Shown here piece by piece: positions 18,406 through 23,712 of a stretch of DNA of 64,000 nucleotides. The translations under genes were made by a program, and so were the position numbers. Under the pieces are notes generated by a model. The model saw nothing but the letters and a program-made list of their open reading frames with translations. It was not told the origin of the DNA and did no database searches. The DNA is taken from the NCBI RefSeq assembly GCF_008831545.1, contig NZ_CP044523.1, positions 496,001-560,000 on the forward strand. Direction: 5' to 3'. This DNA is from Halorussus halophilus (GTDB lineage Archaea; Halobacteriota; Halobacteria; Halobacteriales; Haladaptataceae). Position 1 is the stretch's first letter. Each line of letters begins with the position of its first letter.

Positions 18406-18861
18406 TCAGCAGTCACAGACGCACTCCGGCGTCGTCTCGGCCGGGACCGCACAATCCACGTCCTGACACTCCACGACTTCGACTAGCGACTCCACGTCGG
18501 CCATGATTCCGGCGAGCTCTTCACCGTGGTCGGTGAGTCGATACGTCGTGGTCGGTGGGGACGTAGCGTGAACTTCGCGCGCGACGAATCCCAGACAGCG
18601 GAGTTCGGTCAGCCGCTCCGAGAGCGTCTTCGCGGTTACGCCGTCGAGTTCGCGCTTGAGTTCGTTGAACCCGCGTTCGTCCTCGGCGAGCGCGCGGAGG
18701 ACGTGAAACGCCCACTTCGAGCCGAGGACGTCGCGCACGGCGTGCCACGTGCGTTGCCAGTCATCGCCGACTCCTGATTTCTCGTCTGTTCTCCCCACGG
18801 ACTCGTCGGTTGTTCTCCCACCAGATTCGTCAGCTGTTCTCCCCACGGACTCCTCGTTCAT
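18406..18861 (-). CDS. HxlR-type winged-helix regulator with Cys-rich tail
   Basis: A 151-residue DNA-binding protein. Residues about 35-130 form the HxlR winged helix (LGSKWAFHVLRALAEDERGF, LKRELDGVTAKTLSERLTEL, TYRLTDHGEELAGIM). The N-terminus carries three 8-residue repeats encoded by three 24-bp units. The last 20 residues hold five Cys (ECQDVDCAVP and PECVCDC), an unusual tail able to bind a thiophilic metal or respond to redox. It is divergent from a Cys-rich microprotein and a CDF exporter, and a perfect 11-bp palindrome lies beside its TATA box. Auto- and cluster regulation is inferred. Confidence 0.85.
   Translation of the reverse strand: MNEESVGRTADESGGRTTDESVGRTDEKSGVGDDWQRTWHAVRDVLGSKWAFHVLRALAEDERGFNELKRELDGVTAKTLSERLTELRCLGFVAREVHATSPPTTTYRLTDHGEELAGIMADVESLVEVVECQDVDCAVPAETTPECVCDC
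18787..18858 (-). repeat. Three tandem 24-bp repeats in the HxlR regulator 5' end
   Basis: Units at 18787-18810, 18811-18834 and 18835-18858 each begin TGTTCTCCCC/A on the plus strand. They encode ESVGRTAD, ESGGRTTD and ESVGRTDE. The repeat keeps frame, so copy number changes would alter only the N-terminal extension. Confidence 0.8.
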
Positions 18862-18886
18862 TCACCGAAAGTTGGTTCCCCACTCG

Positions 18887-18892
18887 TATAAG
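18887..18892 (-). promoter_or_regulatory. TATA-like box of the HxlR-type regulator
   Basis: Minus-strand CTTATA lies about 27-32 nt before the ATG at 18861, consistent with a leaderless transcript. Confidence 0.5.
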
Positions 18893-18899
18893 AGTCTGT

Positions 18900-18925
18900 G
18901 GGCGGTTTCCACGCGGAAACCGCCC
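18900..18925. promoter_or_regulatory. Perfect 11-bp inverted repeat, candidate operator
   Basis: GGGCGGTTTCC (18900-18910) is exactly complementary to GGAAACCGCCC (18915-18925) with a 4-nt spacer. It sits just upstream of the regulator's TATA box and 90 bp before the microprotein ATG. HxlR proteins bind palindromes as dimers, so an operator is plausible; a hairpin element unrelated to regulation is the alternative. Confidence 0.5.
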
Positions 18926-19017
18926 TTCTGGGTTGCAACTACCTCACAGGTCACACCCTGCATTTCTGTCGGGAAGCTGACTCGCTTATCTACGTCTCGT
19001 GCGTAGTCGAGACTGCA

Positions 19018-19107
19018 ATGTCCGACGACTGCTGTGTGACCGACACCGACTGTTGCATCGACACCGACCAAATCGTCGTCTGCTGCTGCGGTAGTGGCTG
19101 TTGCTGA
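19018..19107 (+). CDS. 29-residue cysteine-pair microprotein (metallothionein-like)
   Basis: An ATG at 19018 opens a 29-residue frame with nine Cys (31 %): CC at residues 5-6, CC at 12-13, CCC at 22-24 and CC at 28-29. The first half is Asp/Thr-rich, then IVV, then GSG. A TATA-like TTATC lies about 30 nt upstream, matching leaderless starts nearby. The frame can extend upstream, but that part looks non-coding. It lies between a Cys-tailed regulator and a CDF exporter, suggesting thiolate metal binding. Its size and lack of a known family keep confidence moderate. Confidence 0.6.
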   Translation: MSDDCCVTDTDCCIDTDQIVVCCCGSGCC

Positions 19108-19183
19108 ATGTCGTGACTGTTCGGGCGCGAACGCCCGCCGAAAGCGATACGCCCTTTTTCCCGGAGTCCCAATCTCTACTTCC

Positions 19184-20101
19184 ATGTCCCGGAGGACCAC
19201 CGTGCGCCGAGTCGGCTTGCTCGTACTCGTCGCCAATCTGTTGCTGGTCGTCGCCAAGGGGGCCGTCTGGTGGTCCACCGGGAGCCTCGCGGTCGGCTCC
19301 GAGGCAGTCAACAGTCTCGCCGACGTCGCGTACAGCGCCGTCGTGCTTGCTGGCCTCTACTTGACGACCCGACCGCCCGACTTCTCGCATCCGCACGGCC
19401 ACGAGCGCATCGAACCGTTCGTCTCGCTGTTCGTCGCCGTCGGCGTCTTCGCGGCTGGCGGCGCGGTCCTCTGGCGCTCGACGACCACGGTGCTTTCGGG
19501 CGACGTAGCCGTCACGGCCAGTCCCGCCGCAGTCGTCGTGTTGGCCGGAACCGCTGTCGTGAAGTTCGGTCTCTACCGATACTGCCTGAGCGTCAGCGAC
19601 GAGACACGTTCACCCGCAGTGAAAGCCACCGCGCTGGACAACCGCAACGACATTCTCACCGCTGGCGCGGCGCTCGTCGGTGTCCTCGGTGGTTTTTTCG
19701 GCTTCCCGATACTCGACCCGCTGGCGGCGGGCGTCGTCTCCGTGGGCATCCTCTACACCGGGTGGGAAATCGTCCAAGACAACGTCGATTACCTCGTCGG
19801 GAGCGCGCCCCCGGACGACCTGCGCGCGGACATCGTTCGCCGTGCGCTCGTCCACCCCGAAGTGAAAGGTGCCCACGACGTTGTCGCCCACTACGTCGGC
19901 CCGGAGATAGACGTAAGCCTCCACATCGAAGTCGAGGGGGACCGAACGCTGTGGGAAGCCCACGACATCGAGACGGCAGTCGTCGAGTCTATCCGGTCGA
20001 TAGACGAGGTAGACGACGTGTTCGTCCACATCGACCCCAAGGAACTCGGGGAGTGGAAGGCCGACGACTCGGTAGACAATCTCGTCAGCGAGCGACAGTG
20101 A
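19184..20101 (+). CDS. Cation diffusion facilitator (ND-DD type)
   Basis: A 305-residue CDF exporter with about six helices and a C-terminal cytosolic domain (DVVAHYVGPEIDVSLHIEVEG, DDVFVHIDPKELGEW). Metal site A is N-S-L-A-D in helix 2 and D-N-R-N-D in helix 5. Asn replaces the His or Asp found in most zinc and iron members; ND-DD sites are reported for some manganese exporters. The ATG at 19184 starts 77 nt after the Cys microprotein, and earlier in-frame residues look like that intergenic spacer. Probably part of the regulator/microprotein cluster. Confidence 0.9.
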   Translation: MSRRTTVRRVGLLVLVANLLLVVAKGAVWWSTGSLAVGSEAVNSLADVAYSAVVLAGLYLTTRPPDFSHPHGHERIEPFVSLFVAVGVFAAGGAVLWRSTTTVLSGDVAVTASPAAVVVLAGTAVVKFGLYRYCLSVSDETRSPAVKATALDNRNDILTAGAALVGVLGGFFGFPILDPLAAGVVSVGILYTGWEIVQDNVDYLVGSAPPDDLRADIVRRALVHPEVKGAHDVVAHYVGPEIDVSLHIEVEGDRTLWEAHDIETAVVESIRSIDEVDDVFVHIDPKELGEWKADDSVDNLVSERQ

Positions 20102-22642: not shown

Positions 22643-22818
22643 CTCGGCAGCCGTCTTTCTGTTAGTTAGGTAGCCTCGCTGTTTTGAATCGAACGGAATT
22701 GTGGCGTATCTGGTTTCGGAAGTTCACTCTCTGCCTCCTCCGGACCGATTCCCACGTACTGAAAACCGCGTCGTGGGCTTTTCTACGAGGTGTCCGACAC
22801 TGTAGACACTGGTCCCCA

Positions 22819-23712
22819 ATGACAGACGACGCAAGCTACGACCGGCGGTCGGTTATCAAATCAGGCGCTTCGGCCCTCGCAGTCGGGTCGCTCGCGGGCT
22901 GTGTCGGCGGAGCGGACGGTGGAATCGGTGGCTCTGGTGACGGAACGACTACTGCTTCGACCACCGCTTCCGACAGCGACGAACACGTCGTTGAGGTTGG
23001 TCCCGACGGAAATCTCACGTTCGAACCCGCAGCACTCGAAGTCGAGCCCGGAACGACCGTGACGTGGGTCTGGAAGTCAAACAACCACAACGTCGTTTCG
23101 AAAGACCACCCCGAGAATGCCGACTGGCAGGGAACCGACGGCGGCGACTCGAAGGTGTACAATCAGGGCCACGAGTACAGCCACACGTTCGAAACGCCCG
23201 GCACGTACGGCTACTACTGCACGCCCCACAAGGCGGCCGGGATGAACGGCGAAGTCGTCGTCTCCGGGTCGGCGAGCGCGACGACTGAGGCGGCCGAGAC
23301 GGAACACGAGACGACTGAGGAAGCAGATACCGAACCAGAGACGACCGAGGAGGACGAAGCAGCGACGACCACCGAACCGGCGACGGCCGACGACCTCCCC
23401 GTCCGAGTCGGGCCGAACGGCGAACTCCGCTTCGAACCCGGTACCGACGAACCGCTGAAGATTCCCGCCGGGACGACAGTGCCGTTCGTCTGGGAGTCGG
23501 ACAGCCACAACATCGTCGTGGACTCCCAACCCGATGGTGCAGACTGGCAGGGGACGCCCGGCGCCGAGTCGAAGGTGTACGACGAGGGCTACGAGTACAA
23601 CCACACCTTCGACGTGGTTGGCACCTACGAGTTCCACTGTCAGCCTCACGAGTCGGTCGGTGCGACGGGTACCATCGTCGTGCATGGCGGTACGGAGACG
23701 ACCGGGAACTGA
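22819..23712 (+). CDS. Two-domain blue-copper (halocyanin-like) lipoprotein
   Basis: A 297-residue exported protein. The signal RRSVIKSGASALAVGSLAGC combines a twin arginine and a lipobox Cys. Two plastocyanin-type domains follow (about 58-150 and 200-295), joined by a Thr/Glu linker. Domain 1 has the ligands in NNHNVV and YYCTPHKAAGM (His, Cys, His, Met). Domain 2 keeps DSHNIVV and FHCQPHESVGA, but Ala stands where the axial Met should be. Probably an electron carrier at the outer membrane face; domain 2 should have altered copper chemistry. Confidence 0.88.
   Translation: MTDDASYDRRSVIKSGASALAVGSLAGCVGGADGGIGGSGDGTTTASTTASDSDEHVVEVGPDGNLTFEPAALEVEPGTTVTWVWKSNNHNVVSKDHPENADWQGTDGGDSKVYNQGHEYSHTFETPGTYGYYCTPHKAAGMNGEVVVSGSASATTEAAETEHETTEEADTEPETTEEDEAATTTEPATADDLPVRVGPNGELRFEPGTDEPLKIPAGTTVPFVWESDSHNIVVDSQPDGADWQGTPGAESKVYDEGYEYNHTFDVVGTYEFHCQPHESVGATGTIVVHGGTETTGN

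What the first reader, a model, noticed from the sequence alone, without database searches (positions are those of the whole stretch)
18406..20101. Regulator / nine-cysteine microprotein / CDF exporter cluster
An HxlR-type regulator with five Cys in its last 20 residues is divergent from a 29-residue frame with nine Cys arranged as CC, CC, CCC and CC, followed on the same strand by a CDF exporter with an unusual ND-DD metal site. Known metal systems pair a sensor, a buffer and an exporter, but this combination with a tiny paired-Cys peptide is not one I recognise.
Basis: partly seen in the sequence, partly recalled or inferred. Interest (0 to 1): 0.78.

Follow-up and report, generated by a model that had tools for sequence, protein, structure and literature searches.

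The report
Haloarchaeal regulator with paired-cysteine microprotein
Some salt-loving archaea carry a small two-gene unit, a cysteine-tailed regulator divergent from a tiny protein full of cysteine pairs, which probably senses and mops up a thiol-seeking metal or metalloid (arsenite is the best guess); the exporter next door is only a neighbour.

Summary
In 19 haloarchaeal genomes from five families, one lineage of HxlR regulators with a Cys-rich C-terminal tail lies divergent from a 27-67-residue ORF with 8-17 cysteines, mostly in CC runs; 16 of 19 end in CC-stop. In 573 kb of held DNA no other ATG-started ORF is as Cys-rich. The cysteines stay while their codons and the rest of the sequence drift. 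Between the two genes lies a palindrome, GGTTTC-N6-GAAACC, at a fixed distance from the regulator; a perfect copy occurs once in the whole genome, here. The CDF exporter is not part of the unit: it is in all 28 family genomes beside the HIT gene with or without the pair, keeps its own upstream element, is absent beside the pair in the other four families, and its ND-DD site is the known Mn signature. The regulator's closest relatives sit in arsenic operons, or opposite a DUF2703 gene under the same palindrome. Best reading: an archaeal, HxlR-based counterpart of the smtB-smtA sensor/metallothionein pair, probably tuned to arsenite or another thiophilic metal(loid). Ligand, metal binding and regulation are inferred, not shown.

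The parts
18406..18861 (-). HxlR-family regulator with Cys-rich C-terminal tail (Cys89 plus Cys132, 137, 147, 149, 151)
   Evidence: PF01638 E 1.6e-18; orthologues in 7 genomes of the family and 12 micro-linked genomes of other families; C89 and C132 invariant in alignment A1; 0 of 19 control HxlR proteins have 3 or more Cys in the last 35 residues
19018..19107 (+). 29-aa paired-Cys microprotein
   Evidence: counterpart divergent from the regulator in 19 genomes; none elsewhere in 573 kb; pN/pS below 1 in most pairs with Cys retained
18900..18925 (.). perfect palindrome GGGCGGTTTCC-ACGC-GGAAACCGCCC (core GGTTTCN6GAAACC at 18904-18921), predicted operator
   Evidence: only exact core copy in 4.45 Mb; 10 of 12 or better in 15 of 19 micro-linked loci at -58 to -60 from the regulator start
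18886..18892 (-). TATA-like box of the regulator, about 25-31 nt before its ATG (leaderless)
   Evidence: sequence; position typical of haloarchaeal leaderless genes (general knowledge)
18977..18990 (+). CTGA...CTTATC, BRE/TATA-like element of the microprotein about 28-41 nt before its ATG (leaderless)
   Evidence: CTGA plus TTATC-like element conserved at the same spacing in the family
19145..19156 (+). CGATACGCCCTT element upstream of the CDF, also kept where the pair is missing
   Evidence: e.g. L058, L060; argues that the CDF has its own promoter or leader
19184..20101 (+). CDF exporter with ND-DD (Mn-type) A-site; neighbour, not a member of the unit

Best explanation
The regulator and the microprotein form a two-gene thiol-metal(loid) stress unit. 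The HxlR dimer binds the palindrome between the two divergent leaderless promoters and controls its own gene and the microprotein. When a thiophilic metal(loid), most likely arsenite or antimonite, loads Cys89 and the Cys tail, DNA binding changes and the microprotein is made. The microprotein is a metallothionein-like buffer whose vicinal Cys pairs bind and hold the ion. It works like smtB-smtA with a different regulator family and an unrelated peptide. Shown here: both genes, their pairing, the conserved palindrome, protein-level constraint on the peptide. Inferred: ligand, binding by the peptide, DNA binding and direction of regulation.
For: In 19 genomes of five families the Cys-rich ORF is divergent from this regulator lineage, and the regulator is the only neighbour shared by all five. 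No comparable ORF elsewhere in 573 kb. Cys retained with changed codons; pN/pS 0.23-0.61 in 7 of 8 pairs. Palindrome at 10-12 of 12 in 15 of 19 loci, nearly always -58 to -60 from the regulator start; single perfect copy in the own genome; 6 of the 11 exact copies in 19 genomes lie in this gap. Same palindrome at 10-12 of 12 in 7 of 11 loci where the regulator is instead linked to a DUF2703 gene, 9 of 12 in three more. In seven genomes, mostly on plasmids, a relative of the regulator follows an Rdx gene ending in GCC, in the ones read in full inside arsenic operons with arsA, hcsL/hcsS, arsD, acr3, arsR and in some arsM. DUF2703 is in an ars cluster and induced by arsenate in Rhodococcus (PMC6514093). 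Vicinal Cys pairs are implicated in metalloid sensing by ArsD (PMC4562236).
Against: No expression or binding data. The arsenic link is by kinship of the regulator, not by genes at this locus: the window genome has no acr3 and no DUF2703 match (control uninformative). No palindrome match beside the regulator in the ars-operon group. acr3 is if anything rarer in genomes with the pair (3 of 7 against 15 of 21). In f5 and f13 loci an old-yellow-enzyme-like gene is 1-2.5 kb away, as would suit electrophile sensing. The tail is predicted disordered (shallow alignment).
Confidence: 0.6

Rival explanations
1. Same pair, but the signal is electrophile, quinone or disulfide stress, as for YodB, HypR and QsrR. 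The microprotein is a sacrificial thiol or persulfide buffer, not a metal ligand.
For: Nearest solved relatives include HxlR, YybR/HypR, YodB and QsrR. NCBIfam redox regulators RrpB/RrpA are the best named matches, far below cut-off. OYE-like neighbour in f5 and f13.
Against: Dense CC runs in the peptide and Cys-rich regulator tail, ars-operon context of the sister regulators, DUF2703 partner.
Confidence: 0.2
2. One reading: sensor, buffer and CDF exporter act as one metal system, the CDF being co-transcribed with the microprotein.
For: Same strand, gap 52-77 nt, order HIT-regulator-micro-CDF kept in all 7 family genomes that hold the pair.
Against: CDF next to HIT in family genomes without the pair; pair without CDF in four other families; own upstream element; ND-DD is Mn-type (PMC5703985), and Mn is not thiophilic.
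Confidence: 0.08
3. The peptide is a precursor of a modified peptide (thiazole or thioether type) with an antimicrobial or signalling role.
For: One orthologue gives a weak match to a TOMM precursor model (TIGR03602), E 0.005, 16.8 bits against a cut-off of 35; fast-changing sequence.
Against: Below cut-off and composition-driven; no modification enzyme recognised nearby and no shared neighbour but the regulator.
Confidence: 0.05
4. The peptide is not a buffer but part of the sensor: it delivers the ion to the regulator or acts as its co-repressor.
For: Cys-rich tail and Cys-rich peptide are kept together; in lineages with another partner (DUF2703) the regulator tail differs.
Against: No direct evidence; tail and peptide do not co-vary in any obvious way.
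Confidence: 0.07

Closest known systems
smtB-smtA of cyanobacteria (general knowledge)
   Same: Regulator divergent from a small Cys-rich metal-binding protein, palindromic operator in the shared gap
   Different: SmtB is ArsR/SmtB family, here HxlR; SmtA has CxC/CxxC spacing and a fold, here CC runs with no sequence similarity
Haloarchaeal ars operons with halo-CC-star proteins HcsL/HcsS (NF041416, NF041415)
   Same: A close relative of the regulator lies in them; proteins ending in CC-stop
   Different: HcsL/HcsS are larger, with a YlbF-like domain in HcsL; the microproteins match neither model
HxlR/DUF24 regulators YodB, QsrR, HypR, HxlR
   Same: Winged-helix family, Cys- or electrophile-based sensing in several members
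   Different: No comparable Cys-rich C-terminal tail known to me; targets are redox or aldehyde enzymes
Haloferax C(P)XCG zinc-finger micro-proteins (PMC11241148)
   Same: Haloarchaeal proteins under 70 aa rich in Cys
   Different: Two C(P)XCG motifs forming a zinc finger; that spacing is absent here
Mn-type CDF (MntE-like, clade 1)
   Same: CDF with ND-DD A-site
   Different: Only a neighbour of the pair; metal not tested

Membership tests
HxlR family (regulator) | HxlR winged helix-turn-helix domain | tested here: met
   PF01638, E 1.6e-18, 66.8 bits against cut-off 20.8
Characterised redox regulators RrpA/RrpB | NCBIfam model above cut-off | tested here: not met
   41.3 bits against 175 and 28.5 against 185
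Metallothionein-like buffer (microprotein) | Very small, Cys-rich, genetically encoded | tested here: met
   27-67 aa, 16-34% Cys in 19 genomes
Metallothionein-like buffer (microprotein) | Binds metal ions through thiolates | not testable with these tools
   needs purified peptide
Known metallothionein families | Match to a curated Pfam or NCBIfam model | tested here: not met
   window microprotein: 0 families at E up to 1 in Pfam and NCBIfam; five orthologues scanned in NCBIfam gave only one sub-cut-off TOMM match
halo-CC-star HcsS/HcsL | Match to NF041415 or NF041416 | tested here: not met
   no match for P0002 nor for five orthologues
C(P)XCG zinc-finger micro-proteins | Two C(P)XCG motifs | tested here: not met
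   sequence of the window microprotein
CDF family (exporter) | Cation_efflux plus dimerisation domain | tested here: met
   PF01545 and PF16916, TIGR01297 above cut-off
Mn-CDF clade 1 | ND-DD A-site quartet | tested here: met
   N43, D47, D152, D156 in 27 of 27 orthologues; signature from PMC5703985
MntE | MntE equivalog model above cut-off | tested here: not met
   NF052621 107.6 bits against 500
ars resistance system | Linked arsenite efflux, reductase or methylase genes at the locus | tested here: not met
   none among the neighbours read; own genome without acr3; met only for sister regulators
smtB-smtA | ArsR/SmtB-family regulator | tested here: not met
   HxlR, with only sub-cut-off HTH_5 and HTH_metalloreg matches

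The most novel reading that the evidence does not exclude
A new family of archaeal arsenite- (or other metalloid-) binding CC-run microproteins with its own HxlR-type metalloid sensor: an HxlR metal(loid) sensor and an archaeal sensor/metallothionein pair, with the same regulator lineage also placed on ars operons and on DUF2703.
Probability: 0.45. Interest if true: 0.78.

Novelty: new variant of a known kind. Interest (0 to 1): 0.62.

Why it matters
It would give haloarchaea a defined sensor/metallothionein pair, add metal(loid) sensing to a regulator family known for redox and aldehyde sensing, and show a protein family held together only by cysteine runs and by its genetic partner, which similarity searches miss. 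The pair, its palindrome and a simple induction test make it directly testable. It also offers a handle on the unstudied halo-CC-star proteins of ars operons.

Tried and rejected
Chance ORF: rejected. CDF as part of the unit: rejected on distribution. ND-DD as unusual: rejected. The 33-aa MEGVC...GCC ORF upstream of the ars-group regulator looked like a second microprotein but is the end of a 101-aa Rdx-family protein. A palindrome match for the ars group was sought near the regulator and not found. Presence/absence of the pair on the CDF+HIT tree needs about 5 changes, so repeated loss or regain; not resolved. The regulator contexts are clustered on the regulator tree, but the micro-linked ones need 4 changes and long branches meet, so a single origin is not shown. 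No literature on halo-CC-star, and only one paper with HxlR, arsenic and haloarchaea together in the held library (listed, not read). The regulator was not found at this strength outside the order in 393 genomes of the phylum. The structure model is low-confidence outside the winged helix and was not used for a fold search.

Full report
WHAT IS THERE. The window is from a haloarchaeon of the family that holds Halorussus and Haladaptatus (named loci; family Haladaptataceae for Halorussus). The gap between regulator and microprotein holds two divergent TATA-like boxes, each about 25-33 nt before an ATG as in leaderless haloarchaeal genes, and between them a 26-nt perfect palindrome, GGGCGGTTTCC-ACGC-GGAAACCGCCC.

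THE MICROPROTEIN IS REAL. Six further genomes of the family carry the regulator (73-83% identity in the matched part) and all six carry a Cys-rich ORF in the same place behind the same promoter element. A search of 392 genomes of the order with a nine-sequence alignment found the regulator in 40. In 12 of these outside the family, from four more families, a CC-rich ORF is again divergent. In total 19 loci: 27-67 aa, 8-17 Cys, 16-34% Cys, 16 ending in CC-stop. In 573 kb of held sequence, six frames, the only ATG ORFs of 20-70 aa with at least 7 Cys and at least 16% Cys are 18 of these 19; the nineteenth starts with GTG. Close pairs keep the Cys while the codons alternate between TGC and TGT (105 against 91 overall); pN/pS is 0.23-0.61 in seven pairs and 1.0 in one. 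This is protein-level constraint. Translation itself is not shown.

THE UNIT IS THE PAIR, NOT A TRIAD. The CDF is in all 28 family genomes and sits beside the HIT gene; in the 21 without the regulator there is no microprotein, and HIT and CDF are direct neighbours wherever both could be seen. The CDF keeps an upstream element (CGATACGCCCTT-like) whether or not the pair is present. In the other four families the pair lies among other genes (deacetylase and nucleotidyltransferase; thiolase and OB-fold genes; thioredoxin and a membrane protein; an acetyltransferase-like gene; all my reading of the sequences, not a family search), usually convergent with the next gene, and the regulator is the only predicted neighbour shared by all five families. 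The CDF site ND-DD is the published A-site of the Mn clade (PMC5703985) and is invariant in 27 orthologues. Mn does not favour thiolates, so the exporter also fails on chemistry.

THE PALINDROME. GGTTTC-N6-GAAACC without mismatch occurs once in the 4.45-Mb genome, here. In the 19 loci the best match in the 130 nt before the regulator scores 10 of 12 or more in 15, all of them 58-60 nt before the start, against about 7.2 for shuffled sequence. Of 11 exact copies in 19 genomes, six are in this gap. The site abuts the regulator's own TATA box, so autoregulation is the simplest reading; how it acts on the microprotein is open, and protein binding is not shown.

WHAT IT RESPONDS TO. Relatives of the regulator give the hint. 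In a second group of 11 loci the regulator is divergent from a DUF2703 protein in those inspected (PF10865, E 1.5e-23 for the one tested), often ending in CGCGC, CGCDC, CGC or CC, and seven of the 11 loci have the same palindrome at 10-12 of 12, three at 9; an LMW-phosphatase-type gene lies near one, and an ArsP_1 permease with an ArsR gene near another. In a third group of seven, mostly on plasmids, the regulator follows an Rdx gene ending in GCC inside an arsenic operon where it was read: ArsA, HcsL, HcsS and Rdx, with arsD, acr3 and ArsR in both annotated records and arsM in Halorussus limi. DUF2703 is part of an arsenic cluster and is induced by arsenate in Rhodococcus (PMC6514093); vicinal Cys pairs are implicated in metalloid sensing by ArsD (PMC4562236); haloarchaeal ars genes are arsenite-induced in Halobacterium (PMC3600143). 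Tail Cys are special to this lineage: 0 of 19 control HxlR proteins have three or more Cys in the last 35 residues, while members of the three groups have three to six. Cys89, at the end of a predicted helix of the winged-helix domain, is invariant together with Cys132. So a thiolate-bound metal(loid) is the most likely signal, As(III)/Sb(III) first. Against this, the window genome lacks acr3, the ars group has no visible palindrome next to the regulator, and no experiment bears on it.

HOW IT PROBABLY WORKS. Inference: the regulator dimer sits on the palindrome; metalloid binding to Cys89 and tail Cys changes its grip; the microprotein is made and holds the ion in CC pairs, protecting the cell or passing the ion on. 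This is the logic of smtB-smtA with an HxlR regulator. My estimates: pair real and regulated together about 0.9, thiol metal(loid) function about 0.7, arsenite as the natural signal about 0.5.

NOVELTY. Sensor plus metallothionein is a known kind. An HxlR sensor, CC-run peptides without a family model, and their spread over five haloarchaeal families are a new variant. No paper found in the held library describes them, but that library is not complete and gene annotations of the chromosomal loci could not be read here.

Noticed in passing
L150 and L151 (Halorubrum lacusprofundi pHLAC01, Halorussus limi plasmid): Haloarchaeal ars operons carry halo-CC-star proteins HcsL and HcsS and an Rdx protein with a Cys-rich end (CC-stop in the copies translated); NCBI names HcsL/HcsS but no paper in the library mentions them.
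   Followed up: partly
L128, L131, L125, L138 and other regulator loci: A DUF2703 (thioredoxin-like) protein divergent from the same regulator lineage, mostly under the same palindrome, ending in CGCGC, CGCDC, CGC or CC.
   Followed up: partly
L121-L124, L134, L139: An old-yellow-enzyme-like gene lies 1-2.5 kb on the microprotein side in two families, a possible hint at electrophile stress.
   Followed up: no
family genomes: The window genome has no acr3 match; acr3 above the curated cut-off is in 3 of 7 genomes with the pair and 15 of 21 without.
   Followed up: partly
L031, 17-Cys orthologue in Halorussus amylolyticus: Microprotein expanded by repeated CC-Gly-rich units, looking like internal duplication.
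   Followed up: no
window 22684-23712: Protein with two plastocyanin/azurin-type copper domains (PF00127), two genes beyond the CDF.
   Followed up: no
L122, L123: The true start of these microproteins is probably a GTG nine codons in, as in the orthologue of L124.
   Followed up: no
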